DNA from: Anaerolineaceae bacterium
GTDB lineage: Bacteria; Chloroflexota; Anaerolineae; Anaerolineales; Anaerolineaceae
Assembly: GCA_028714615.1 (NCBI GenBank)
Contig: JAQTMA010000083.1
Span: forward strand, 1 to 16,334
Direction: 5' to 3'
DNA: 16,334 bases
In this document: in pieces, positions 2,483 through 16,081 of the stretch
Layout of the letters: every line of letters begins with the position of its first letter
Numbering within the stretch: position 1 is the first letter of the stretch
Translations under genes and position numbers: made by a program
The notes under the pieces: generated by a model
Seen by the model: only the letters and a program-made list of their open reading frames with translations
Told to the model about the DNA's origin: nothing
Database searches by the model: none

Positions 2483-4495
2483 TTATTGGCACCCAACCGT
2501 TGCCAGGGGTGTATTCCCGACCTGGAACGAGCCAACCAGGGTCTTGAGCCACCAGAGCGTTTCACCTGAGGCAGCAAGCTGATTGGCGCTGGTTTGTTGG
2601 GCTTGCGCTAACCCGGTCGCCAGGCACCACTGTGAGCTGCCGGCTTTGAGCAGCATCCATTGATTGTTCCCCCCCTGGGTCACCAGGCTGCCATCCGGAA
2701 GCGCCTGTAAGCCAGGGAAGACGCCGGGGTTCTCCGCCCCGGGTACGGCGGGGAGAGTCACCGCTACCCAGGTTTGCCCGGCATCCTGGCTAAGGCGCAC
2801 TGGAAAATCGGCGCTACCGGAGAGCAAGAGCGCTTTCATGGGTTCACCCGAAAAGGTGACCAATTGGTTCGGCCCAGGCATGCGCAGCTCAACCGAAGGT
2901 CCAGGGTAACTCCATGTACTGCCGCTGTCATTGGAGATCATGATCCACTGCGGAGCAGGGGAGCCCATTCCGCTAATAGTGCTTGCCGTAGGTCCCCAGC
3001 GCATGCAGGAACCGGTCTGTCCCTGCGGGCAAACGGGGGTGCTGGGCGTCCAGGTGAGGCCGCCATCGGTGGTCTGCTCGACGAGCGGGGCGGACGGCTG
3101 GTCTTGCCCGCGCGCCTCAACGGTGAAGAAGGCTTCCACCCGGTCGCCGGCAGCCCAAAAGCCGCCAAAGTTTTCGGGCGAGGCGCCTTCTGGAAGCGGG
3201 ACCGGTTTCCAGGTGACGCCCGAGTCGGTGGTGAGGAATCCCATGAAAAATACCGGGGGCGCGCCATATTCTTTGCTGGCTGCATGGTACGTAGCGTAGT
3301 AGCTACCGGGTTTTCCCCCATCCATGACGACCGAAACGCAGGCGGTGCTCCCCGCGGCTACGCTGAAGGTGTAACCGGCGATGACAGATTTCTCCGTAGC
3401 GGTCGGGACCGTAACCCAGGTCTTGCCGTCATCGCGCGTAGCCCGGATGTTGTTGGTATCGCAATAAGCCACCCAGCCAGGGAAGCTCGGTGTCGTAAAA
3501 AGTTCGTAGCCGCTAATCGTCCCGCTATACTGAAGCCAGGCTGGCTTGCCCAATTGCAAGCTCTGCCAGGTTAAACCCGCACCTACCTGAAAAGGGGTCT
3601 GAGCCAGCAGTAGCGGTTGGGTGGCCTGCACCACCTGTGGGCGGGCAGCCTGCAGCGCCAGGGTATATTGCCCGGCTTTGAGCTGACCCACGCCAGGCAT
3701 AGATTGGGGCACCACAAAGCGACCGTCCAGGTTGCCATCCAGTCCTTGCGAGATATCCCCGAGTTGGATTGGCTGGCCACCCTGGGGCGGGAGCAGCACC
3801 AGGGAATATCCGAAAGCCAATGAACCGATTACCTGGTCTAGTGGAGCCCAGCCTGTCACCTTGACCTCCTGCCCGGCCGTTCCGGAGGTAGGGTTGAATT
3901 CCAATGAAGGGATGGTCTTGCTTTCTCCGCCCGCTGTATTTACCTCTACGTGCAGCTTGGCGCTGACCTGCGTCTCGCGTATCGCGCAGCCTTTCTGGTC
4001 GGCGCCCAGGCATTGCACACCCACCAGGTAATCCCCACTCACCATCGGCTGGGCGCCGTTGTCTTGGATCCACGATATGGCCGGAACATTGAACTGTATG
4101 CGAAAACGCCCGGGTTGATCTGCAGACCAGACTACACTTTGACCCTGTAAAACGATACCGTTCATACATCCTTGCCAGCAAACGTTGGCATGCAGCAAGC
4201 TCTCATTCGACTGAGCCTGAGCAGCGCTCGGTCCACCCGGCAGGTAGCCGTCTATAGCCACCGCTGCCCCCGGTGAGGTTGATTCAGGTTTGAGCTGGAT
4301 CCACGCGCCCACCGGAGTAATGACGACGCCTGTAGCGGTCGGGCTTTGAAGCGGGAGCGGCCCCGTCGATGTTGGGCTGGATTGGGAGGCAGTTGATACT
4401 GGAGGCGCCACCGGTGTGGAGGTCACGGCGGGCTGGCAGGCGCTGACAACCAGAGCCACAAGCATGACGGTTGGTATGATCCTTATCTTCCACAT
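2483..4495 (-). CDS. Asp-box (BNR) repeat lipoprotein, predicted beta-propeller
   Basis: 670-residue exported lipoprotein. The signal peptide ends in the lipobox VSAC with the lipidated Cys at residue 20, followed by a Ser/Thr/Pro-rich linker to about residue 60. Residues 61-185 and 195-305 look like two Ig-like beta domains; the first has Cys residues at 106, 110, 162 and 170 that could form disulfides. Residues 310-670 carry five Asp-boxes, S/T-x-D-x-G-x-T-W: TRDDGKTW 353-360, TTDSGVTW 422-429, TTDGGLTW 475-482, SNDSGSTW 521-528 and SQDAGQTW 569-576. Asp-boxes mark sialidase-like and YCF48-like propellers. The sialidase Arg triad is not recognisable, so an enzymatic role should not be assumed. 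I chose the ATG at 4495 because GGGAGG precedes it by 4 nt and the signal peptide starts there; an in-frame start 12 codons earlier is less good. It lies 69 bp after the next lipoprotein gene on the same strand, so co-transcription is likely. Confidence 0.8.
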   Translation of the reverse strand: MWKIRIIPTVMLVALVVSACQPAVTSTPVAPPVSTASQSSPTSTGPLPLQSPTATGVVITPVGAWIQLKPESTSPGAAVAIDGYLPGGPSAAQAQSNESLLHANVCWQGCMNGIVLQGQSVVWSADQPGRFRIQFNVPAISWIQDNGAQPMVSGDYLVGVQCLGADQKGCAIRETQVSAKLHVEVNTAGGESKTIPSLEFNPTSGTAGQEVKVTGWAPLDQVIGSLAFGYSLVLLPPQGGQPIQLGDISQGLDGNLDGRFVVPQSMPGVGQLKAGQYTLALQAARPQVVQATQPLLLAQTPFQVGAGLTWQSLQLGKPAWLQYSGTISGYELFTTPSFPGWVAYCDTNNIRATRDDGKTWVTVPTATEKSVIAGYTFSVAAGSTACVSVVMDGGKPGSYYATYHAASKEYGAPPVFFMGFLTTDSGVTWKPVPLPEGASPENFGGFWAAGDRVEAFFTVEARGQDQPSAPLVEQTTDGGLTWTPSTPVCPQGQTGSCMRWGPTASTISGMGSPAPQWIMISNDSGSTWSYPGPSVELRMPGPNQLVTFSGEPMKALLLSGSADFPVRLSQDAGQTWVAVTLPAVPGAENPGVFPGLQALPDGSLVTQGGNNQWMLLKAGSSQWCLATGLAQAQQTSANQLAASGETLWWLKTLVGSFQVGNTPLATVGCQ

Positions 4496-4523
4496 GGTGC
4501 CTCCCGTAACATTGTTAAACCTG

Positions 4524-4540
4524 CCAGGCAAACTGCCTGG
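4524..4540. repeat. Small hairpin between the two lipoprotein genes
   Basis: CCAGGCA (4524-4530) and TGCCTGG (4534-4540) form a 7-bp stem with a 3-nt loop in the 69-bp spacer between the two lipoprotein genes. The stem is the same as that of the dispersed repeat unit at 2101-2307, so this may be a worn single copy. It could also act in mRNA processing between the two genes. No T-run follows, so I do not call it a terminator. Confidence 0.4.
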
Positions 4541-5169: not shown

Positions 5170-5261
5170 TTCCTGGGATTGGGTTGCAAGGCTCGTTCCA
5201 AAACCCAGGCAGATCAAAGCGCCAGGATGGGGGAGACACCCTGGCTTACGAACACCTTGCT

Positions 5262-7046
5262 TTATGGTTCAAGACGCGATTTCTTCGTAGCTCGCAAGAC
5301 CATCTCAATGAACAGGGCAGCAGACCAGCCGAAGCTGGTGGCTGCTTTTGCGCCGGGTTCGCCGGTTTCCGGGTTGTAATACTCGTAGATGTCCGGGTAG
5401 CCGACGATCATTTCCAAAGTACGCTCCCGTAATGCCTGGGCGACCTGGTCAAAACCCGAGCGCTCTAATCCCTCCTGGAGCAAGTAGTTGACGTTCACCC
5501 AGGTCGGGCCACGCCACATGGTGGTAGGGCTGTACGCGGCCTGATTGAGAGCCACCGTCGGCACCGGGTAACGCGGCCAGAAAGTAGCCGGGTCGGTCAG
5601 ATGGTTGACCAGGTTCTTCGCAATCGCCGGATCCAATTGCCCGGTAAGCAGGGGAAACAGGCTAAAAGGTGTGATGAGAGAAAGTAGATTTCCCTGACGA
5701 AAAGCGCGATACAAGCCTGCCTGGGGATCATACAGCTTCTGGTTCATTTTGGCCATCAGGGCAGCCGAACGTTGCTCCCAATTGAGGGCGCCGCTTTCAT
5801 CACCGAGCACGTGAGCGATGTGCCCCAGGCTCTCCATCTGGAGGTAGAGATAGGTGTTCAAATCCGGCGAAGCAACCGGCATACCCTCATCCCAGAGCGG
5901 GCTATCATCCAAACCAGACGAATAGGGGTGCTGGTATTCGCAGAGCCCATCGTTGTCCGAATCGTTCTTCTCGAACCACCATTGGTTCCAGTGTACGATG
6001 GGCTCGTAAATCTCGTCCAGGAACTCCTTATCGCCGTCCCTCTGGAATACCTTCCAGGCCGTCCACCCCAGAAGAGGCGGTTTGGTTACGTCAGCGTCGA
6101 TAGGGTATGGAAGGTGTTCGACGATTCCTTCATCGTGGACGGCATCCGGGATCATGCCGTCCGGGCGCTGGTGGTCGAGCATCACGCGGATCTGATCGTG
6201 AGCCAACATCGGATCAACGTGGCTGTAAGCCAGCGCGTGGAAGTAGGCGTCCCATTGCCACACACCGATGTAGTAGATCTTCGAAGGCGTCATCGCCTCG
6301 CGGGTGGTAAAAAAGCGGGTGGAGATCAAACCGGCGCGCATGATCCACCAGGCATAATAATACTGAGTGCGGTAAGGTTCCGGAACGGGTGGAACTGCGG
6401 CAAACCAATCATGCCAGCGCCGCGCCGAATCCAGAAAGGTCGCCTCCAAGGCGGGCATGTACCGGTTAAAACCCAAACGAGGGGTGATGTTGAGCAGAAT
6501 GCCGCAGGTGGGACCATCCTTCAAGCGCAGGTGGACTTCCAGGTTACCGCGCTCATTCATGTTGATCGTGTTTTCAAGAATGGGCCGGTTCGTCGTGTAA
6601 GCCATATTCCGGCGGATATTCCCGGTCACATGGAGTACTCCACCGCGGCGGTCGAGAATGCCATCATTCATGTGGGCTTCAAAGGTAATGCCACAGGCAA
6701 CGGGTGGGATCGAAAGAAGCATGGTCTCCATGTCCGCAAATGTCAGCGAGAACTGCCCGATACGGGTATCCAGATCCAGCCGGTGAGGGAAAGAGGTGAG
6801 CTTGAATTCCAATGGAATGCCGTCCCCATCTGTCAGGCGGAAGTTTTCCACGATGGGCGGGCGCTTACGGTAGCCTGCCAGGTCTTGATCCAGTTTGTAC
6901 CAGCGCTCGACCAGGCGCAGGATGAGTGAAGAGGCGGTTTGTTGCATGACGAGGATACGCGATCCTCGCTCACTAAAAGGGATATGGGTCAGGTCGATGC
7001 GGTTTTTCAATAAGAGGAGATAAGGGGATACAGTCTCAACAATCAT
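5262..7046 (-). CDS. GH63-type (alpha/alpha)6-barrel glycosidase, candidate glucosylglycerate hydrolase
   Basis: 594-residue intracellular glycoside hydrolase (no signal peptide). Numbering below is from a TTG four codons upstream, for 598 residues. Residues 1-200 form a beta-rich N-terminal domain; 215-590 form an (alpha/alpha)6 barrel with the marks of GH63 and related debranching-type enzymes: GVWQWDAYFHAL at 265-276, HQRPDGMIPD at 296-305, SGLDDSPLWDEG at 381-392 with D384 as likely general acid, MWRGPTWVNVNYLL at 514-527, and YEYYNPETGEPG at 558-569 with E559 as candidate general base. Known GH63 glucosylglycerate and mannosylglycerate hydrolases are about 430-450 residues with the same SGxDxSPxWD core; the extra N-terminal domain makes this one larger. 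Placement after GpgS, phosphatase and phosphorylase genes argues for a GG- or MGG-cleaving role; amylo-alpha-1,6-glucosidase is the alternative. I chose the ATG at 7046 because GGAG precedes it by 6 nt. It may have its own transcript, since 257 bp with repeats separate it from the phosphorylase gene. Confidence 0.7.
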   Translation of the reverse strand: MIVETVSPYLLLLKNRIDLTHIPFSERGSRILVMQQTASSLILRLVERWYKLDQDLAGYRKRPPIVENFRLTDGDGIPLEFKLTSFPHRLDLDTRIGQFSLTFADMETMLLSIPPVACGITFEAHMNDGILDRRGGVLHVTGNIRRNMAYTTNRPILENTINMNERGNLEVHLRLKDGPTCGILLNITPRLGFNRYMPALEATFLDSARRWHDWFAAVPPVPEPYRTQYYYAWWIMRAGLISTRFFTTREAMTPSKIYYIGVWQWDAYFHALAYSHVDPMLAHDQIRVMLDHQRPDGMIPDAVHDEGIVEHLPYPIDADVTKPPLLGWTAWKVFQRDGDKEFLDEIYEPIVHWNQWWFEKNDSDNDGLCEYQHPYSSGLDDSPLWDEGMPVASPDLNTYLYLQMESLGHIAHVLGDESGALNWEQRSAALMAKMNQKLYDPQAGLYRAFRQGNLLSLITPFSLFPLLTGQLDPAIAKNLVNHLTDPATFWPRYPVPTVALNQAAYSPTTMWRGPTWVNVNYLLQEGLERSGFDQVAQALRERTLEMIVGYPDIYEYYNPETGEPGAKAATSFGWSAALFIEMVLRATKKSRLEP

Positions 7047-7127
7047 GAATGACTCCAAAAGCAGAAATCGTGCGCAATGTGTTTAAATAGCCCCGTTTTT
7101 GACTGGATATATTGTACTCAGGATTCC

Positions 7128-7154
7128 GCTCGCGCGAGCCCCCAAATTTGGGGG
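7128..7154. repeat. Two adjacent perfect palindromes upstream of the GH63 gene
   Basis: GCTCGCGCGAGC at 7128-7139 is a perfect 12-bp palindrome and runs straight into CCCCCAAATTTGGGGG at 7139-7154, a perfect 16-bp palindrome, sharing one base. They lie about 80-110 bp upstream of the GH63 start codon. Between them and the gene, the minus strand reads TACAAT, a possible -10 element without a clear -35. They could be operator sites for the GH63 gene or a mobile repeat fragment. Confidence 0.55.
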
Positions 7155-7183
7155 AGGGTGAGGTGCGGGATCGAACCAACGAC

Positions 7184-7245
7184 GTAGCCCGGGCATCCCT
7201 GCCCGGGGTTCTAAGGACGGCCCCGGGCAGGGATGCCCGGGCTAC
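7184..7245. repeat. 25-bp perfect inverted repeat, GC-rich copy of the dispersed palindromic unit
   Basis: Positions 7184-7208 and 7221-7245 are exact reverse complements over 25 bp with a 12-nt loop. Each arm is itself a hairpin with stem CCCGGGCA/TGCCCGGG and a four-base loop, ending in the conserved CTAC/GTAG. Compared with the cluster at 2101-2307 the stem has changed A-T to G-C on both sides, preserving pairing. It sits between the phosphorylase and GH63 genes, where the large hairpin could reduce read-through or protect the 3' end of the upstream message. Confidence 0.85.
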
Positions 7246-7303
7246 AGGTCTACAAAAGCTGATCCCTCAAGAGGCTCACCTCTACTGCGTGCAAGCTCGT
7301 TAT

Positions 7304-9058
7304 CTACAACGGCAAAGGCGTGGACGGCACCAACCACATGGCCTGGTACGGGCTCAGGCGGATTCCCCCGGCGGTCGCCTCAACCTTTTCCCCGCTGATC
7401 TGATCTTCCCAGGCAATCTCTCCACCAGGCAAATCCATATCCACCCAGGCATAATGCACTTCCCCTGACACATTGATCAAGCAGACAAGTAAGGGATTTC
7501 CGCCTGGTGCTTCCCGCAGCAGAGCAAAGACAGCTTCTCCTGCCTCCAGAACGCGTTGTGAGCCGGATGGATCAAATGCCGATAGTGAAGCGCGCACCCG
7601 CAGCAGATGGGCGTAGCGGCGATAAATCATCCCCCGTAGGGAAGCCGGATCGTCCAATTCGGCCGCCAGCAAGTGATAGGCAAACTTTTGCCGGTTAATG
7701 GCGCGGTTTGAGCCGCTCTTCGCCACCCCTTCTGCCCAGCCGCGCGAACCAACCAGGCTGTGGAAGTAAATCCCCGGGACACCCTGAACAGAAAGCAAAA
7801 TAGTCTGGGCGGCCATGAAACGATCCACCTGGCGCTCGAGCGGTTCATCCACCCCGGGAGGAGTCAGCGCATCCAAATAATTGATATTGAGCTCGTACAC
7901 GCTCTCGCCCCCACCCGGGTTGCTTTTGCGGCTGACTCGCCCTCCACGCTGCTCAACTGCGGCCACCATGCCGTCGATTTCTGGCTCGGGCAGGATGCCA
8001 CGCACCGGGTTCAAGCCGATGCCATCGTGGGATGCCAGGAAGTTGAAGAACGTCACTTCTTTGGAGGGCAGCTCCAGGCTGGCAGCCCATCGCGATAAAT
8101 ACCCGGCCTGCCCGGTAAGAAAGGCGTGCAGCACCAGCGGCGGTAGGGCAAAGTTGTAGACCAGTTGAGCTTCTCCGTGGCCGCCGCCAAAATAGGATAG
8201 GTTTTCCAGATGGGGCACGTTGGTTTCGGTCACCAGCAGAACGTCAGGGGCGACGATGTCCAGCACAGCCCGCAAGAAGCGGATGATCGTGTGCGTCTGG
8301 TATAGGTGAATGCAAGCTGTCCCCGGCTCCTTCCAGAGATAGGCAATCGCATCCAGGCGCAGCCATTGGGCGCCATTGGCCACGTAATACAGCAAGGTCT
8401 CGGTGATATCCAGTAAAACATCCGGATGATGATAGTTGAGGTCGACCTGGTCCGCGCTGAAGGTGGTCCACACCGGCCGAGGACCTTGCTTCGTCTCGAA
8501 CATCGTCAGCAGGGGCAGCGATCTGGGACGGACGACGTGTGACAGGTCCGTGTCAGGCGGAACGGAGATGTAAGCCTCGCGGAAGCGCGGGTCGCCGTCC
8601 AGGAAAGCGCGAAACCAGGCATGCTGGCTGGAGGTGTGGTTGATGACCCCATCGACCATCAGGCGGAAACGCCTCGCCAAATGGTTGATCTGTTCCCACG
8701 AGCCCAATCGGGGGTCTACCGTAGTGTAATCTGAGACCGCGAAACCGTCATCGGAGGTAGAGGGGAAGAAGGGCAGGATGTGTAGACCGGTTACCAGGCC
8801 AACCAGGTACTGATCGGCGAAAGTGGACAGCGTGCCCAGGGGGGGTTCACCAGGTTTCGTAAGCTGGTCGGGATAGACGATCAGCATCGCGTCGCGCTCG
8901 CTGAGGGGATTTCCCCGCACAGGCAAGATGGCTGCATAGCTTGCGAGAAATGCATCCAACCGTTCGCATAGTTGGTGGAAGGCGATTTCACCTTCCGAAT
9001 CGCCATAAAGCGACGTCAGATAAGGGCGTAAGGGGGTGTAATCCGGTGAGGGGGTCAT
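7304..9058 (-). CDS. GH13 subfamily 18 sugar phosphorylase, candidate glucosylglycerate phosphorylase
   Basis: 584-residue cytoplasmic retaining phosphorylase of the sucrose-phosphorylase group. It would convert an alpha-glucoside plus phosphate into glucose-1-phosphate and a free acceptor. The (beta/alpha)8 catalytic core is complete: D136 to H141 in DGVINH, nucleophile D236 in WLRLDAIAYLWKEPGT, acid/base E278 in LLVTETNVPH, and transition-state D345 in LASHDGIG; the C-terminal beta domain runs from about 495 to 580. GH13_18 includes sucrose, sucrose-6-phosphate, glucosylglycerol and glucosylglycerate phosphorylases (the last known from Meiothermus and E. coli YcjM). The loop VVRPRSLPLL at 176-185 and the adjacent gpgS and phosphatase genes favour glucosylglycerate as substrate, which would salvage the glucosyl unit as glucose-1-phosphate without spending ATP. 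ATG at 9058, 24 bp after the phosphatase stop; only a weak purine-rich AGAAGAAG leader serves as ribosome site, suggesting translational coupling or modest expression. Sucrose or sucrose-6-phosphate remain alternative substrates. Confidence 0.75.
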   Translation of the reverse strand: MTPSPDYTPLRPYLTSLYGDSEGEIAFHQLCERLDAFLASYAAILPVRGNPLSERDAMLIVYPDQLTKPGEPPLGTLSTFADQYLVGLVTGLHILPFFPSTSDDGFAVSDYTTVDPRLGSWEQINHLARRFRLMVDGVINHTSSQHAWFRAFLDGDPRFREAYISVPPDTDLSHVVRPRSLPLLTMFETKQGPRPVWTTFSADQVDLNYHHPDVLLDITETLLYYVANGAQWLRLDAIAYLWKEPGTACIHLYQTHTIIRFLRAVLDIVAPDVLLVTETNVPHLENLSYFGGGHGEAQLVYNFALPPLVLHAFLTGQAGYLSRWAASLELPSKEVTFFNFLASHDGIGLNPVRGILPEPEIDGMVAAVEQRGGRVSRKSNPGGGESVYELNINYLDALTPPGVDEPLERQVDRFMAAQTILLSVQGVPGIYFHSLVGSRGWAEGVAKSGSNRAINRQKFAYHLLAAELDDPASLRGMIYRRYAHLLRVRASLSAFDPSGSQRVLEAGEAVFALLREAPGGNPLLVCLINVSGEVHYAWVDMDLPGGEIAWEDQISGEKVEATAGGIRLSPYQAMWLVPSTPLPL

Positions 9059-9082
9059 TCTTCTTCTGGAAATGTGGAATGT

Positions 9083-9646
9083 TCAGCCGGAGGGCCAAAC
9101 GACGACGGTCGGTTGGGCATTATCGGGGATCAAGGAATAGACTTGCTCCAGCGGGATGTTCCGGCCGCGCGCGATGAGGGTAGCCAGCGCCAGACCATGC
9201 GAAACGACCAGGATGCGACCCAGCGGGTGGTTCCGGGCAATCTCATCCGCAGCAGCATACACCCGCGCGGCGACTTCGGCAACGGATTCGCCCCCGGGAG
9301 CACGCGCGGCAACCGGGTTTTTGCGGCGGGCGGCCATCTCCGCAGCATAGCGCAGGGCAAGGTCTGTCACCAGCAGCCCTTGCCATTCCCCCTGGTGGAT
9401 CTCGCGCAAGCGTGCATCCAGGCGCAGTACCAGGCCCAGGCGGTTAGCCAGGATCTGCGCCGTCTGGCGCGCACGCTGCAGATCGCTGGAATAGATGGCC
9501 ATGAAGGCTTGCCCTTCCATTGCTTTCGCCAGAGCCCGCGCCTGAGCAAGACCTGCCGGGTTCAGCGGCATGTCTGCCTGCCCCTGGTAGCGACCTTGTA
9601 TATTCCAGTCTGTCTGGCCGTGGCGGATGAGGTGGAGTTCGGACAT
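9083..9646 (-). CDS. Histidine phosphatase (PGM-like), candidate glucosyl-3-phosphoglycerate phosphatase
   Basis: 187-residue member of the histidine phosphatase superfamily, branch 1. Catalytic residues are all visible: R8-H9-G10 in LIRHGQTDWN, with H9 the phospho-accepting His; R58 in SSDLQRARQT; E82 in LREIHQGEWQG as proton donor; and H150 in VVSHGLALA. The conserved PGGES follows at 117-121. Sequence alone does not separate GpgP from cobalamin or general sugar phosphatases, but lying 11 bp downstream of gpgS makes dephosphorylation of glucosyl-3-phosphoglycerate (or its mannosylated form) the simplest reading; mycobacterial GpgP belongs to this family too. The ATG at 9646 has no clear Shine-Dalgarno, and the sequence just upstream is a heptanucleotide repeat, so translation probably depends on coupling to the GpgS gene. 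The phosphorylase gene begins 24 bp later. Confidence 0.75.
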   Translation of the reverse strand: MSELHLIRHGQTDWNIQGRYQGQADMPLNPAGLAQARALAKAMEGQAFMAIYSSDLQRARQTAQILANRLGLVLRLDARLREIHQGEWQGLLVTDLALRYAAEMAARRKNPVAARAPGGESVAEVAARVYAAADEIARNHPLGRILVVSHGLALATLIARGRNIPLEQVYSLIPDNAQPTVVVWPSG

Positions 9647-9652
9647 AGGGGC

Positions 9653-9680
9653 AGTGGTTAGTGATCAGTGATTAGTGGTG
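9653..9680. repeat. Heptanucleotide tandem repeat across the gpgS stop codon
   Basis: Four head-to-tail 7-nt units read AGTGGTT, AGTGATC, AGTGATT, AGTGGTG (consensus AGTGRTN). They cover the last codons and TAA of the Usp-GpgS gene and most of the gap to the phosphatase. The unit is not a multiple of three, so gain or loss of a copy would change the C-terminal tail and move the stop. Similar heptamer repeats are common as intergenic repeats in several bacterial groups. Confidence 0.8.
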
Positions 9681-11505
9681 AAGCACTCCCCGGAAGCAGC
9701 GTGCACTTGTGCTCCAGGCAATATTCCTGGATCTCAGCCATAGGCGGGCGCTCACGCTCGACTACGTCTTCCACCTCCAGGAAGTAATTACCTTCATCGA
9801 AGTGGATCAGTTTCATCGTCTTGTTGACCTCCTCAAGGAAGGCGCGATCGAAACGATGCTCCAGCTTGTGCATCACGGCTTGCAGGATAGTAAACGACAT
9901 TTTGCTCAAGGCTTCCAGCGATTGGTTGTGATGCACCCGCTCGAGCAGATCCACCTGTGCAATGGCGGCCAGGCCAAACTTCTCGAACATATCGATCAAC
10001 AAACCGATTTCCACCCCGTAGCCGGAGAAGAACGAGCACTGCTCCAATGCAGTGCGGCGGCCTCCGTACTCGCCGGAAAGCGGCTGGATCACCCCGGATA
10101 GCTCGGGGAAGAACAGATTGATCAGCGGGCGCGCGGTCAGCTCAGTGACCCGTCCGCCAGCGCCCGCTTGAACCAGGTCACCGGTACGCAACGGGCGTTG
10201 GTAAAAGCCCTTGACGAATTGCAAGGCGGGATTGAGCAGCAGCGGACCGATCACCCCGTAGACAAAGCGCGGATCGATATTGACGATGTCGGTATCGATC
10301 CAAATGAGGATATCTCCATGAGTAACCATCAAGCTCTTCCATAGGGCTTCCCCCTTACCGCTGCGCGGTCCATAAGCGGGTAGCACTTCCTGGTGGATGT
10401 GCACCGGGATGCCCTGGGCGGAAGCGATTTCACGGGTTCGATCGGAGGAGTTTGAATCCATCAGGACGATCTCATCCAACAAAGGGAAACTGGACTGGAG
10501 TGCTTCTCGCACCGTGCGGATCACCTCGCCTACCGTCTCTTCTTCATTCAAAGCAGGCAGCGCCAGGCTGATGGTAACCCCCTGCTCGCGCTTCAAACGC
10601 ACCAGGCGAGCCAGATCGTCGAACTCATCCGCGTGAAAGGTGTTCTCCGCAAACCACCGGTCGACCAGCAGAGAAATGGCCTGAGCGCCGGCGCGCTCCC
10701 CCTCCGGACCGGTCCATTGAGCTGGCTGAGGGCGTCCCGCGCTGAGCACAACCAGCGCACCCGGCGCCTGGGTGAGCATGCGCTCCACAAATGCGCCACT
10801 GGCGCTCCCCGCCGGACCACTGGAGGCGCCTAAGAGTAGCAGATTAGCCTCGCGCGCCTGCTCCAAGATCGTCTCCGCCGGGCTGACTGACGTAGCTACC
10901 TGAAAAGTTACGCCTGCCAGGCTGGGAAGCACGCGCTGCAGACCGCGAAAGGGTGCGTCAACGGCGGGGGCAGCATCCGGACGAGATACGTGCAATGCCA
11001 CCAGGTCGTTGTGCGGCAAGGCCAGAGCCAGGCGCAGGGCTAATTCCGCATTGGGACCGCCGCGCACCGGGACGAGCACCCGTTGGATGGCCGTTGGCCA
11101 CGGCCCGCGCGTCAAGGCGACCGGGCAGGGCGGATTGGCGAGCACGGAGGCAATCGTCAGGTTGAGGATGCCAAAATGCTCCGGCCACTCCAACACCAAC
11201 AGGTCTGGTGGTTCGCTGGCCAGAGCGCGGGTCAGGTCATCCCAGGCATGTTGTGAAACAATCACCCTGGACTGGGTTGAGAATGGTAAATGAGTACGCA
11301 ACCCTTCCAACTGCTTGCGCAGGGCGCGGACCGCGCCGGTGGCTGCCGTGAGCGATTTTTCTTCGGGCACGCTCACCAGGCCGATCAATTGCACTCGCCC
11401 GCCCAAGCAGCGGGCCAGTGACAGGGCGGTTTCGGGTACCTGTCCTGCGGAGACCGGTACGACCACGCGTAAAAATGGGGTGAAAGAACGCTCGGCTCGG
11501 GTCAT
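9658..11505 (-). CDS. gpgS: Tandem universal-stress-protein domains fused to glucosyl-3-phosphoglycerate synthase
   Basis: 615-residue fusion. Residues 11-133 and 141-256 are two Usp-type alpha/beta domains (FLRVVVPVSAGQVPETALSLARCL; QRVLVPVRGGPNAELALRLAL); the second ends LLLLGASSGPAGSASGAFVE, a partial G-x2-G-x9-G nucleotide motif, while the first has lost it. Residues 281-605 are a GT-A retaining glycosyltransferase of the GpgS (GT81) type: PALNEE 317-322, MDSNSSD 349-355, SGKGEALWK 382-390, metal-binding D404-T405-D406, the acceptor-site region GRVTELTARPLI 451-462 and PLSGEYGGRR 475-484, GYGVEIGLLID 495-505, and H525/H526 for the metal-ligand His. GpgS transfers glucose from an NDP-glucose to 3-phosphoglycerate. 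Stand-alone GpgS is about 320 residues, so the N-terminal half is an addition. The ATG at 11505 overlaps the GT4 stop as ATGA, with GGAG 7 nt upstream; an open frame continues 68 codons further inside the GT4 gene but encodes no conserved sequence. The extreme C-terminus is encoded by the heptamer repeat. Confidence 0.9.
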   Translation of the reverse strand: MTRAERSFTPFLRVVVPVSAGQVPETALSLARCLGGRVQLIGLVSVPEEKSLTAATGAVRALRKQLEGLRTHLPFSTQSRVIVSQHAWDDLTRALASEPPDLLVLEWPEHFGILNLTIASVLANPPCPVALTRGPWPTAIQRVLVPVRGGPNAELALRLALALPHNDLVALHVSRPDAAPAVDAPFRGLQRVLPSLAGVTFQVATSVSPAETILEQAREANLLLLGASSGPAGSASGAFVERMLTQAPGALVVLSAGRPQPAQWTGPEGERAGAQAISLLVDRWFAENTFHADEFDDLARLVRLKREQGVTISLALPALNEEETVGEVIRTVREALQSSFPLLDEIVLMDSNSSDRTREIASAQGIPVHIHQEVLPAYGPRSGKGEALWKSLMVTHGDILIWIDTDIVNIDPRFVYGVIGPLLLNPALQFVKGFYQRPLRTGDLVQAGAGGRVTELTARPLINLFFPELSGVIQPLSGEYGGRRTALEQCSFFSGYGVEIGLLIDMFEKFGLAAIAQVDLLERVHHNQSLEALSKMSFTILQAVMHKLEHRFDRAFLEEVNKTMKLIHFDEGNYFLEVEDVVERERPPMAEIQEYCLEHKCTLLPGSASPLITDH

Positions 11506-12722
11506 TGGCTCTCCAATAAGGGGGCTATCCGCTGTCGATAAACCGCCTGCCAGGTGAACTCCGTACGCACGCGCAAGCGCATCTGGTAGGTTGGATCCTG
11601 GTTCAGCCGTTTGGCAATCACATCGGCGACGACTTGCGGGGCTTCTTCCGGGGAGAAATACGTCCCCCATTCCCTGGCCAGGTCTCGGAGGGCATCCAAC
11701 CCGGTGCAAAAGATTGGGAGGCGGGCCAACCCGGCTTCGAGGATGGGAATGCCGAAGCCTTCCTCGCGACTGGTGATCAGCAGGGCATCTGCCAGTTGAT
11801 AAAAGTCAACCACTTCCTGCGGACGCAAGCCTTCCGGCCGGATTTCAGCGAGGAAATGTACTGCACCGGCCAATCCAAGAGATTGGCGCAGGTGGCGGAG
11901 GGTTTGAAAATAGGTATCGTTATTCGGATTGTGCGCTCCAGGCGGGCCGGTGATCACCAGTTGTGCATGGGGCAATTGTCCTCTCAACGCCTTCAGGATA
12001 TGGAGCCCTTGCTCGAGATTTTTCCGCGCGGTAAGCCGCACGGGGGTGAGCAGCAGGGGTTGGGCAGAGACCATCCCCAGTCGTTCGTACAAGGACCAGG
12101 TCTCGGAGGATATGCGCAAGAATTCCTTCAAATCAATCCCGGCCGGGATCACCGCGATGCGCGCCTCGGGGATGCCCAGAAGGTGGGCCAGCTCGATGCA
12201 CCGCGGTTGCGAAACAACCACCTGGGTTGCTCCGGGCCAGGCCTTGCGCAGCAGCTCCCAGGGCCAACCCGGGTGCAGTTCGTTCTGATAGCGCGGCGCG
12301 GTGCAGGCCAGGTCGTGGTGCCAGAGGATCAGGCGCGGCGCTCCAGGCATCTGACTCAGGCGATATAAGGCGGCGGTCAATGCCAAATTCATGTGTAGCG
12401 AGGCCACATTGTGCGCAATGACGACCTCCACCCCTACCAGGACCTCCTGCAAGTCGGCCTGGATCGCTACCGTTGCCGGCTCGAAACCTGCGGGCACTTC
12501 CCCGCGATCGAGGCTGGCCTTCAATGCCAAAACCTCAGGATTCCGCGAGTCAAGGCCAGGGATTACGATCACCGGGATGCGCCCATCCCAGGCTGCGCCC
12601 CGCCCGGTGATAATCAACGCCTGATGCCCAAACTGGGTGAACAGCTCAGCCTGACGCGAAATTACCGATTCCACCCCCCCGACGACCGGCGGGGCAGCGT
12701 AGTGGATCAATGCAATCTTCAT
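11502..12722 (-). CDS. GT4-family GT-B glycosyltransferase, candidate mannosylglucosyl-3-phosphoglycerate synthase
   Basis: 406-residue cytoplasmic GT-B enzyme. N-terminal Rossmann domain begins MKIALIHYAAPPVVGGVESVI with the Gly-rich acceptor-side loop at 11-17. The C-terminal donor domain carries R229 and K234 in PVRLTARKNLEQGL, TGPPG at 258-262, and the EX7E motif E321-E329 in SREEGFGIPILEAG, as in retaining GT4 enzymes using GDP-mannose or NDP-glucose. As first gene of a unit with gpgS and a phosphatase it may mannosylate glucosyl-3-phosphoglycerate (like MggA of Petrotoga) or glucosylglycerate, giving MGG. A glucose-extending or unrelated sugar transfer cannot be excluded from sequence. 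The ATG at 12722 was chosen because a near-perfect AAGGAGGG lies 3 nt upstream (12726-12733); an in-frame ATG 33 codons earlier adds non-conserved sequence and reaches into the -35 region. Its TGA overlaps the GpgS ATG by 4 nt. Confidence 0.8.
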   Translation of the reverse strand: MKIALIHYAAPPVVGGVESVISRQAELFTQFGHQALIITGRGAAWDGRIPVIVIPGLDSRNPEVLALKASLDRGEVPAGFEPATVAIQADLQEVLVGVEVVIAHNVASLHMNLALTAALYRLSQMPGAPRLILWHHDLACTAPRYQNELHPGWPWELLRKAWPGATQVVVSQPRCIELAHLLGIPEARIAVIPAGIDLKEFLRISSETWSLYERLGMVSAQPLLLTPVRLTARKNLEQGLHILKALRGQLPHAQLVITGPPGAHNPNNDTYFQTLRHLRQSLGLAGAVHFLAEIRPEGLRPQEVVDFYQLADALLITSREEGFGIPILEAGLARLPIFCTGLDALRDLAREWGTYFSPEEAPQVVADVIAKRLNQDPTYQMRLRVRTEFTWQAVYRQRIAPLLESQ

Positions 12723-12784: not shown

Positions 12785-12821
12785 TAGCCATAGTATAGCG
12801 GAGGTGGGTGATTTGTGTCAA
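12785..12821 (-). promoter_or_regulatory. Sigma-70 type promoter of the glucosylglycerate cassette
   Basis: On the minus strand TTGACA (12816-12821, perfect -35) is followed after 18 bp by TATACT (12792-12797, five of six -10 bases). Transcription would start near 12785, leaving a leader of about 62 nt before the GT4 ATG at 12722. This is the strongest promoter match in the window. Its -35 box abuts the place where the -35 of the opposite, plus-strand promoter should be. Confidence 0.75.
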
Positions 12822-12829
12822 TTGGTGGC

Positions 12830-12838
12830 TGGTATAAT
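12830..12838 (+). promoter_or_regulatory. Extended -10 promoter giving a probably leaderless lysM lipoprotein mRNA
   Basis: TGG followed by TATAAT (12833-12838) is an extended -10 element with a perfect hexamer. The expected start of transcription, about 7 nt downstream, coincides with the ATG at 12845, and no Shine-Dalgarno sequence is present, so the mRNA is predicted to be leaderless. A canonical -35 is not seen, which is usual for extended -10 promoters. Confidence 0.65.
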
Positions 12839-12844
12839 CGAATC

Positions 12845-13840
12845 ATGTTCCCCCATATTGAGCGATGCATCGGAACCATTCTCCTCGTGGCGCTGCTATT
12901 GGATGGCTGCACCCCGGCAGTTACCCAGGCGCCTACCCCTACCATTGAGCCTTCCCCGGTCCTGACACTGTATCACACCCCGACGGTAACCCCGTCCCCC
13001 TCGGGACTCCCTCCCACGCGCACCCCGCTGCCTTCGCCAACGCTTACGCCCGTGACCTATGCGGTCAGAGCGGATGATGATCTCTTCGGGATATCGCTGC
13101 GGTTCGGTGTTAGCCTTCCGGCATTGAAAACCGCTAATCCCAAGGTCAACCCATATTTCATGGGGGTGGGCACACTTTTGACCATCCCGGTCACCCCACC
13201 GGCCTCGGGCACGGGAACCCTCACGGCGGCAACGCCGAGGTCCGCGAATGCACCGCGGGACGTAGCCAGTTCGGTGAGCATATCCTTACCCACCTGCTAT
13301 CCTTCGGCGGACGGCGGGTTGTGGTGCCTGGCATTAGCTCATAACCAGCAAACCCAGAGTCTGGAGAACCTGTCGGTCATCTTCCGGCTTGCGGGGAAAA
13401 ACCCAGATGTTTTGACAGACCAGGCGGTATTTTCACCCTTCAACGTATTGCCTGGGTCGGGGTTGATGCCGGTCGTGATTTACTTCCCAGCGCCAGCGCC
13501 ATCTGAATATGGAGTCGAAGTCCAGGTCGACAGCGCCCTGCCGGTCGCGCCGAATGACGTACGCTACCTGGCTGCCAAAATCCAGCAGGAGCAGATCCAA
13601 GTGGATGGACTCGCTGCGCGAGCAACCGGGCAGGTGGCATTGGCAGATGCTACCGCCCAAGCAGGGGAGATTTGGGTGTTAGCAGTCGCCTATGGAGAGG
13701 GGCAGCAGGTGGTCGGCCTGCGCAAGTGGGAGAGCCCAACCGGTCTGGCTGGTGGTGAGAGCCTGCCGTTCGATCTGACGGTCTACAGCTTGGGGCCGGA
13801 TATCCAGCGGGTGGAGCTGCTCGTCGAAGCGCATAAGTAA
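12845..13840 (+). CDS. LysM-domain lipoprotein
   Basis: 331-residue exported lipoprotein. The signal peptide MFPHIERCIGTILLVALLLDGC ends at lipidated C22; residues 24-69 are a Pro/Thr-rich spacer, typical of surface lipoproteins that reach through the wall. A single LysM (VTYAVRADDDLFGISLRFGVSLPALKTANP) spans about 70-115 and should bind peptidoglycan glycan chains. Residues 150-331 look like two beta-sandwich domains of unrecognised family (TCYPSADGGLWCLALAHNQ with a Cys pair at about 158/169, and a C-terminal strand set ending RVELLVEAHK). The start was set at ATG 12845 rather than an in-frame GTG 10 codons earlier, because the -10 element lies inside that extension. It is divergent from the glucosylglycerate cassette and ends 19 bp before the convergent repeat lipoprotein gene. 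A role in envelope maintenance is the most that can be inferred. Confidence 0.8.
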   Translation: MFPHIERCIGTILLVALLLDGCTPAVTQAPTPTIEPSPVLTLYHTPTVTPSPSGLPPTRTPLPSPTLTPVTYAVRADDDLFGISLRFGVSLPALKTANPKVNPYFMGVGTLLTIPVTPPASGTGTLTAATPRSANAPRDVASSVSISLPTCYPSADGGLWCLALAHNQQTQSLENLSVIFRLAGKNPDVLTDQAVFSPFNVLPGSGLMPVVIYFPAPAPSEYGVEVQVDSALPVAPNDVRYLAAKIQQEQIQVDGLAARATGQVALADATAQAGEIWVLAVAYGEGQQVVGLRKWESPTGLAGGESLPFDLTVYSLGPDIQRVELLVEAHK

Positions 13841-15577: not shown

Positions 15578-16081
15578 ATGTTAATGCCAACTATGGACCA
15601 GATCTCCCTTTTTCAAGGATTAAGCCCGGCGCAGGCCGGCTTGCTCCAATCGTTGATGGAACCTTGCGAGTTCCTTCGCGATTCAAGTATATTTGAGCAG
15701 GGTGAGGCCGCTCAATATCTCTACGTCCTGGTTCGGGGTGAAGTCCTGGTGCGGTACAAAGCCTACGATGGACCGGTGATTACGGTTGCCCACGTCGGTC
15801 CAGGGGGTGTTTTCGGCTGGTCAGCCGCGCTCGGGCGTCCGGCGTATAGTTCTGGCGCGATCTGCGCTACCAACTGCCAGGCTTATCGGATTATGGGCAG
15901 AGCCTTACACCACCTTTGCAATCAAAACCCAGACTCAGGCATGATCATCCTGGAACGCTTAGCCGACGTCATCGCCGAGCGCCTGAGCAGTACGCACAGC
16001 CAGGTTTTGGAAATGTTGACCCAAAGTCCGGATTCAAACGGAGAATGCCTGAGGAGGGTGTCCCGCAATGGTAACCAATAG
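15578..16081 (+). CDS. Cyclic-nucleotide-binding-like domain protein without a DNA-binding domain
   Basis: 167-residue Crp/Fnr-like sensor domain standing alone. The beta-roll spans about 8-115 (LFQGLSPAQAGLLQSL; IFEQGEAAQYLYVLVRGEVLVRY; VGPGGVFGWSAALG), followed by the long C-helix (119-150). No helix-turn-helix follows; the remaining 17 residues are polar and look disordered. The phosphate-binding cassette, normally FGELxLL...RxA, reads FGWSAALGRPAYSSGA: the Glu is Trp and the Arg is absent, so cAMP binding is unlikely and another ligand or a purely structural role is more plausible. Two Cys (95, 100) sit in the following strand. Start at the first ATG (15578); ATGs two and five codons later are also possible and none has a clear Shine-Dalgarno. 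Its stop overlaps the NifU-like gene by 14 nt, indicating co-translation and a likely functional link to Fe-S or sulfur metabolism. Confidence 0.8.
   Translation: MLMPTMDQISLFQGLSPAQAGLLQSLMEPCEFLRDSSIFEQGEAAQYLYVLVRGEVLVRYKAYDGPVITVAHVGPGGVFGWSAALGRPAYSSGAICATNCQAYRIMGRALHHLCNQNPDSGMIILERLADVIAERLSSTHSQVLEMLTQSPDSNGECLRRVSRNGNQ

What the first reader, a model, noticed from the sequence alone, without database searches (positions are those of the whole stretch)
5262..12722. A self-contained glucosylglycerate synthesis-and-turnover cassette
Five same-strand genes combine a GpgS-type synthase, a histidine phosphatase, a GT4 that could extend the product, a GH13_18 phosphorylase and a GH63 hydrolase. 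Each family is known singly in glucosylglycerate (GG) or mannosylglucosylglycerate (MGG) metabolism. Having the anabolic steps and two different breakdown routes together is what stands out. It suggests a compatible solute or carbon/energy buffer made under stress and salvaged as glucose-1-phosphate or glucose afterwards. The operon structure (4-nt overlap, 11-bp and 24-bp gaps) supports joint function for the first four genes.
Basis: partly seen in the sequence, partly recalled or inferred. Interest (0 to 1): 0.8.

Follow-up and report, generated by a model that had tools for sequence, protein, structure and literature searches.

The report
Glucosylglycerate making-and-recycling gene cassette
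A bacterium that is probably one of the Chloroflexota carries neighbouring genes that appear to make a protective sugar-acid, probably lengthen it, and later reclaim it as fuel, with the first enzyme fused to stress-protein domains.

Summary
The five genes are real and at the stated coordinates. Two identifications hold well. The synthase scores above the GpgS equivalog cut-off. The phosphorylase carries both published glucosylglycerate-phosphorylase (GGaP) signatures and is 44% identical, end to end, to E. coli YcjM. Gene content is conserved: in 301 sampled Chloroflexota genomes the GT4 occurs in 64 of 86 GpgS-positive and 2 of 215 other genomes, GGaP in 35 and 2, GH63 in 18 and 3. Three points change the reading. 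(1) The synthase is a fusion: two tandem universal-stress-protein domains precede GpgS, and long GpgS frames are the rule in the sample. (2) The GH63 is not a recognised glucosylglycerate hydrolase: it fails that model (105 vs 550 bits) and several glycerate-site residues are replaced or missing, although both catalytic acids remain. (3) Among GpgS-positive genomes, GGaP and GH63 occur only in those with the GT4. I therefore favour make (GpgS, phosphatase), extend (GT4), trim (GH63), phosphorolyse (GGaP) over two parallel breakdown routes. The substrates of GT4 and GH63 are inferred, not shown.

The parts
12792..12821 (-). promoter-like site (TTGACA-18-TATACT) ahead of GT4
   Evidence: 11 of 12 consensus matches; site total of the region not above shuffles, so weak evidence
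11502..12722 (-). GT4 glycosyltransferase (GT4a), companion of GpgS, predicted to extend glucosylglycerate or its phosphate
   Evidence: Pfam PF00534 63.4 bits; distant to MggS model NF041101, 41.2 vs cut-off 640; 64 of 66 genomes with it have GpgS over the cut-off; just upstream of GpgS in 59 of 86 loci
10741..11505 (-). tandem universal-stress-protein module (residues about 13-133 and 142-255) fused to GpgS
   Evidence: Pfam Usp 39.6 bits vs cut-off 24 for the second domain; AF2 model and Foldseek matches to tandem USP Rv2623 (3cis); ATP motif G2xG9xG[ST] absent in 27 of 27
9658..10740 (-). GpgS domain, glucosyl-3-phosphoglycerate synthase
   Evidence: NF010496 371.4 bits vs cut-off 262
9083..9646 (-). 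histidine phosphatase (branch 1), predicted GpgP
   Evidence: PF00300 198 bits; RHG at residue 8; phosphatase 1ebb 90.3 and glucosyl-3-phosphoglycerate phosphatase 4pz9 88.1 bits nearly tied
7304..9058 (-). glucosylglycerate phosphorylase (GH13_18)
   Evidence: TETN and loop-A Glu (signature from PMC7178133); 44% identity, 466 bits to E. coli YcjM
7184..7245 (.). REP-like palindrome in the GGaP-GH63 gap
   Evidence: related copies at 2133-2308
5262..7046 (-). GH63-type inverting alpha-glycosidase, YgjK-like two-domain layout with a mannosylglycerate-hydrolase-like catalytic domain
5221..5245 (-). terminator-like hairpin beginning 17 nt past the last base of the GH63 stop
   Evidence: region total not above shuffles, weak

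Best explanation
A sugar-glycerate solute module that makes, lengthens and reclaims its product. Step 1: the USP-GpgS fusion joins glucose from a nucleotide sugar to 3-phosphoglycerate (assigned by family). Step 2: the histidine phosphatase removes the phosphate, giving glucosylglycerate (assigned by family and position). Step 3: the GT4 adds a further sugar to glucosylglycerate or its phosphate (inferred). Step 4: when stress ends, the GH63 removes that terminal sugar (inferred). Step 5: GGaP phosphorolyses glucosylglycerate to glucose 1-phosphate and D-glycerate, so that the glucose leaves already phosphorylated (assigned by signature and homology). The USP module is the likely stress input on step 1 (inferred).
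For: GpgS over its equivalog cut-off. GGaP signatures and YcjM homology. Genome-level nesting in 301 genomes: GT4 in 64 of 86 GpgS-positive vs 2 of 215 other genomes; within GpgS-positive genomes GGaP in 35 of 64 with GT4 and 0 of 22 without, GH63 in 18 of 64 and 0 of 22 (E limits 1e-70, 1e-110, 1e-60). Locus level: a hydrolase that matches PF22422 (GH63, F6 or S4) lies near GpgS in 36 of 59 loci with GT4 and 0 of 27 without, within 400 bp upstream of the GT4 in 29. In L188 a GH63 and a GT4 sit together in a cluster where a GT20 synthase and a trehalose-phosphatase-like HAD protein stand in place of GpgS and its phosphatase. GH63 keeps the -1 (sugar) residues that I could place apart from Gln115 and Tyr375, and loses several glycerate-binding ones, as expected if glycerate is not its direct leaving group. 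In some relatives ion antiporters and a DarA-like cyclic-di-AMP receptor adjoin the cluster.
Against: No substrate of GT4 or GH63 was tested. GH63 relatives also occur away from the cluster: 7 of the 18 GpgS-positive GH63 genomes have it elsewhere; three such loci (L190, L191, L193; 41-43% identity) carry it beside a GH13 gene, and L190, whose genes I read, is a sugar-importer operon, so the family may be a general alpha-glucosidase. The GH63 of L188 groups in the tree with those importer-type copies, and L188 also has an importer permease upstream, so it is weak support for a travelling pair. The best GH63 tree needs four changes for the in-cluster label, though well-supported branches force only one. 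The histidine phosphatase is near GpgS in only 13 of 86 and 39 of 80 loci. The 22 GpgS-positive genomes without GT4 may be few lineages, so nesting may be partly ancestry. By sequence and fold the GpgS part ranks R. xylanophilus MpgS first (244.7 vs 233.6 bits), so a mannose donor is not excluded.
Confidence: 0.5

Rival explanations
1. One reading: the product is plain glucosylglycerate, GGaP and GH63 are two parallel ways to break it down, and GT4 is accessory.
For: GH63 keeps Tyr36, Trp40, Trp42, Asp43, Gly180, Asp182, Trp376 and Glu419 equivalents and its catalytic domain fits mannosylglycerate hydrolase closely (rmsd 2.1 A over 322 residues).
Against: Fails NF047898 (104.9 vs 550); Gln115 to Lys and Tyr375 to Met in 16 of 16 aligned sequences, Arg216 cap segment missing, while two proteins of other Chloroflexota that exceed the GgH cut-off (L180, L181) keep Gln, Tyr and the cap. 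Not found in a GpgS-positive genome without GT4 (0 of 22).
Confidence: 0.27
2. GpgS primes a longer intracellular glucan or oligosaccharide, as in mycobacterial methylglucose lipopolysaccharide synthesis; GT4 (and in relatives GT4b) elongates it and the GH enzymes trim it.
For: Two GT4 types adjoin GpgS in many relatives (69 GT4a-like and 48 GT4b-like sequences in the 80 loci and the window, one of the 69, in L019, only weakly alike); GpgS is a key enzyme of methylglucose lipopolysaccharide synthesis in M. tuberculosis (title of PMC2581804, listing); some cluster hydrolases carry a glycogen-debranching N-domain.
Against: No methyltransferase or acyltransferase among the recurring neighbour families that I annotated (the rarer families were not annotated); a phosphorylase for bare glucosylglycerate fits a small solute better.
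Confidence: 0.13
3. The synthase is really an MpgS-like enzyme and the solute is mannosylglycerate, degraded by a mannosylglycerate-hydrolase-like GH63.
For: R. xylanophilus MpgS is the best solved match by sequence and fold; GH63 catalytic domain resembles Tt8MgH.
Against: GpgS equivalog model far above cut-off; a glucose-specific GGaP in the same operon, and GGaP in 35 of 86 GpgS-positive genomes.
Confidence: 0.06
4. The GH63 is only a neighbour, separated by a REP-like element, and acts on imported alpha-glucosides.
For: Palindrome in the 245-nt gap; off-cluster relatives L190, L191, L193 lie beside a GH13 gene, and L190, whose genes I read, shows a sugar-ABC operon.
Against: 10-13 nt from GGaP in L005 and L011; 1-nt overlap with GT4 in L168, L172 and L174; GGaP also present in 10 of 11 GH63 loci.
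Confidence: 0.04

Closest known systems
Gene groups with GGaP and GpgS, GpgP or glycerate kinase (review PMC7178133, passages read)
   Same: Synthase, phosphatase and phosphorylase of glucosylglycerate as neighbours
   Different: Here with a GT4, a GH63 that does not pass as GgH, and a USP-fused GpgS
Mycobacterial GpgS (M. tuberculosis, M. hassiacum structures)
   Same: Same catalytic domain, up to 233.6 bits
   Different: Those chains have 326-344 residues; this protein has 615, with two USP domains in front
E. coli YcjM glucosylglycerate phosphorylase
   Same: 44% identity over full length, same TETN and loop-A Glu
   Different: YcjM sits beside an importer and a kojibiose phosphorylase gene, with no GpgS in the 24 kb shown
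MhGgH glucosylglycerate hydrolase and Tt8MgH mannosylglycerate hydrolase (GH63)
   Same: Catalytic-domain fold, both catalytic acids, most -1 subsite residues
   Different: Extra N-terminal beta domain; Gln115 and Tyr375 replaced, Arg216 cap absent
E. coli YgjK (GH63)
   Different: Window family has Met before WRG where YgjK has Tyr; 594 residues against 760
Mannosylglucosylglycerate synthase MggS (GT4)
   Same: Proposed role: adds a sugar to glucosylglycerate; distant GT4 homology
   Different: 41.2 vs cut-off 640 bits; the closer MggS homologue in relatives is the other gene, GT4b (245.6 bits), not among the window's ORFs scanned

Membership tests
GpgS (NF010496) | equivalog model above curated cut-off | tested here: met
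   371.4 vs 262 bits
GpgS (NF010496) | glucose donor and 3-phosphoglycerate acceptor | not testable with these tools
   needs assay; MpgS of R. xylanophilus is the top structural match
GGaP (GH13_18) | (T/S)ETN motif at beta-strand 5 | tested here: met
   TETN in the window; (T/S)ETN in 120 of 120 listed homologues, the window's own among them, in 46 of 48 frames over 500 aa of the 80-locus set (the window among them) and 19 of 19 of the survey set (motif from PMC7178133)
GGaP (GH13_18) | Glu instead of Gln in loop A | tested here: met
   VYELN; 117 of 120 listed homologues have Glu by pattern
GGaP (GH13_18) | homology to a characterised GGaP over full length | tested here: met
   YcjM 44%, 466 bits
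GG hydrolase GgH (NF047898) | equivalog model above curated cut-off | tested here: not met
   104.9 vs 550 bits
GG hydrolase GgH (NF047898) | catalytic Asp182 and Glu419 | tested here: met
   D380 and E555, invariant in 16 of 16 (numbering transferred by me)
GG hydrolase GgH (NF047898) | glycerate-contacting residues Tyr36, Trp40, Tyr88, Arg216, Tyr375 | tested here: not met
   Tyr36 and Trp40 kept; Tyr375 is Met, Arg216 segment absent; Tyr88 is His in 14 of 16 but falls differently, so open (residue list from PMC6608630)
MggS (NF041101) | equivalog model above curated cut-off | tested here: not met
   41.2 vs 640 bits
GpgP | histidine-phosphatase fold with RHG motif | tested here: met
   PF00300 198 bits; RHG at residue 8
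GpgP | closer to GpgP than to other histidine phosphatases | tested here: inconclusive
   88.1 bits to GpgP (4pz9), 90.3 to phosphatase 1ebb, 87.5 to phosphoserine phosphatase 1 (4ij5)
Universal stress protein | Usp domain | tested here: met
   second domain over Pfam cut-off; first by fold only, tandem USP match 3cis
ATP-binding universal stress protein | G2xG9xG(S/T) motif (recalled) | tested here: not met
   0 of 27 sequences

The most novel reading that the evidence does not exclude
Chloroflexota run an undescribed solute system: a stress-protein-regulated GpgS makes the glucosylglycerate head, a dedicated GT4 lengthens it into a new glycosyl-glucosylglycerate, and a new GH63 specificity trims it back so that GGaP can recover glucose 1-phosphate. 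GT4 and GH63 may also serve as an extend-and-trim pair behind other sugar-phosphate synthases, as the L188 cluster hints.
Probability: 0.3. Interest if true: 0.7.

Novelty: new variant of a known kind. Interest (0 to 1): 0.5.

Why it matters
The review PMC11009771 (passages read) says that such osmolytes were long considered biosynthetic endpoints. This cassette puts making, probable lengthening and recovery side by side in Chloroflexota, for which my searches of the held library listed no paper on a glucosylglycerate cluster. It offers testable enzymes with named isolates as carriers (Thermanaerothrix daxensis L005 with all five genes, Bellilinea caldifistulae L063 with four), a GH63 with a likely new specificity, and a stress-protein module fused directly to a solute-making enzyme.
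Full report
What is there. The window holds five minus-strand genes between 12722 and 5262. By Pfam and NCBIfam they are a GT4 glycosyltransferase, a GpgS, a branch-1 histidine phosphatase, a GH13_18 protein and a GH63-like protein. No whole genome is held for the window. Where sources name its listed homologues by organism, nearly all are Chloroflexi or Anaerolineae (one Bacteroidota label; most are unnamed), so it is probably an Anaerolineae contig (inference).

The synthase is a fusion. Residues 349-661 of the longest ORF reading match NF010496 at 371 bits, cut-off 262. The ORF proper starts at the ATGA overlap and has 615 residues. In front of GpgS lie two alpha/beta domains (AF2 model, mean pLDDT 75.9, pTM 0.59). 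Pfam Usp hits the second. Foldseek lists, below the GpgS and MpgS structures, the tandem USP protein Rv2623 (3cis), and also KCC cotransporters. In 301 Chloroflexota genomes 86 have GpgS over the cut-off; the stop-to-stop frame is 599 residues or more in 84 of them, and the other two (480 and 587) end at contig ends. The USP part was found by tblastn at 45 bits or more in 84 of the 86 loci. The ATP motif of USP proteins, recalled, is absent in 27 of 27 aligned sequences.

The phosphorylase is a GGaP. A review (PMC7178133, passages read) gives two sequence marks: (T/S)ETN and a loop-A Glu. The window has both. (T/S)ETN is present in 120 of 120 listed homologues, the window's own among them (the best 120 of 7998), the Glu in 117; of the longer frames in my loci, 46 of 48 in the 80-locus set (the window among them) and 19 of 19 in the survey set have (T/S)ETN. 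E. coli YcjM is named GGaP in RefSeq, and the review lists an E. coli enzyme among the strict GGaPs; YcjM is 44% identical at 466 bits. The best solved chain of any kind gives 162 bits.

Conservation. Among 80 loci found with the synthase (223 pattern matches, 207 confirmed, best 80 kept) tblastn at E 1e-5 finds GT4 in 75 (one, L076, at only 60 bits), histidine phosphatase in 39, GH13 in 51 (two of these below 100 bits) and GH63 in 22, of which only 7 exceed 500 bits; the other 15 are weak hits (50-62 bits), mostly to the distinct hydrolase F6. Because that set was drawn by similarity, I also took the 86 GpgS loci of the 301-genome sample: GT4 just upstream in 59, GGaP in 21, GT4b in 14, histidine phosphatase in 13, GH63 in 11, DarA in 7; GGaP and GH63 together in 10 of the 11 GH63 loci (Fisher p 1e-6). 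Some loci are cut by contig ends. The exact window order appears in L005 and L011 only, and the order of its first four genes in 7 of 80; other orders include GH63-GT4-GpgS-GGaP, GGaP-GH63-GT4b-phosphatase-GT4-GpgS and GGaP-GH63-GT4-GpgS.

Co-occurrence in whole genomes (301, the same group drawn each time, tabulated). Limits: GpgS over its cut-off; GT4 profile E 1e-70; GGaP E 1e-110; GH63 E 1e-60. GT4 in 64 of 86 GpgS-positive and 2 of 215 other genomes; GGaP 35 and 2; GH63 18 and 3. Within GpgS-positive genomes GGaP and GH63 are confined to those with GT4 (35 of 64 vs 0 of 22; 18 of 64 vs 0 of 22). Of the 18, GGaP is also present in 15. Kinship was not corrected for, and completeness of these genomes is not told.

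An exception that cuts both ways. Genome G018 has no GpgS over the cut-off. Its GH63 and GT4 lie in one tight cluster with a GT20 protein (324 bits to OtsA, cut-off 565) and a trehalose-phosphatase-like protein (124 bits, cut-off 68). GT4 and a GH63 can thus stand with another sugar-phosphate synthase. But that GH63 groups in the tree with the off-cluster copies L190, L191 and L193, and an importer permease lies upstream. It is one genome only. In G065, also without GpgS over the cut-off, GT4 stands beside GT4b, with no hit to GH63 or GpgS on that 16.7-kb contig.

Against my reading. Off-cluster GH63 relatives exist in 7 of 18 GpgS-positive GH63 genomes; three of these loci (L190, L191, L193) have a GH13 gene next to the GH63, and L190, whose genes I read, is a sugar-importer operon; L186, also read, shows the GH63 among genes without evident link. 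The GH63 tree does not group all cluster copies, though well-supported branches do not exclude it. The GpgS domain's top solved match is a mannosyl enzyme. The phosphatase could not be told from its kin and is often not near GpgS.

Setting. In relatives a CPA2 antiporter (13 loci), a calcium/sodium antiporter (11), a DarA-like cyclic-di-AMP receptor (10) and a CitMHS/ArsB-type transporter (9), of 80, lie within the fetched flanks, often directly beside the cluster, which fits an osmotic role (inference). DarA-like means over the Pfam cut-off (75.4 vs 27) but under the DarA equivalog cut-off (86.2 vs 140). None was seen in the window. In the window a strong palindrome splits GGaP from GH63 and may lower GH63 expression (inference).

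Verdict. GG synthesis and GGaP recovery are well supported by family evidence. A GT4-extended product with a trimming GH63 is the best fit but unproven. Rated a new variant of a known kind, interest 0.5.

Noticed in passing
7184-7245 and 2133-2308: REP-like palindromes: a perfect 25-bp inverted repeat between GGaP and GH63 and a cluster of related copies near 2.2 kb; no exact copy of its 21-base core in 200 fetched loci.
   Followed up: partly
L188 7203-12591: GH63, GT20, GT4 and a trehalose-phosphatase-like gene in one tight cluster in a genome without GpgS over the cut-off.
   Followed up: partly
L108 3907-6018 and 19 other survey loci: A GDE_N_bis plus MGH1-like hydrolase (S4) near GT4-GpgS in 20 of 86 loci, overlapping GT4 by 4 nt in L108 and L125.
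   Followed up: partly
L032 15084-15425, L039 11911-14817, L061 10845-12104: DarA-like cyclic-di-AMP receptor and cation antiporters beside the cluster in relatives.
   Followed up: partly
L015 11145-11507: 120-residue recurring neighbour (F14, 9 loci) with no Pfam or NCBIfam match.
   Followed up: no
L196, L197, L199: GT4b-GT4a pairs away from GpgS, one in a genome (G065) without GpgS over the cut-off.
   Followed up: partly
15578-16081: Short cyclic-nucleotide-binding protein without a recognised DNA-binding domain.
   Followed up: no
30-845, 863-1858, 2483-4531, 12815-13840: LysM/M23 peptidase, LiaF/LiaG-like protein, a protein with a weak BNR match and a protein with a weak LysM match flank the cassette.
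   Followed up: no
L008: A locus labelled Deltaproteobacteria carries the same GT4-USP-GpgS pair as Anaerolineae; possibly a binning error.
   Followed up: no
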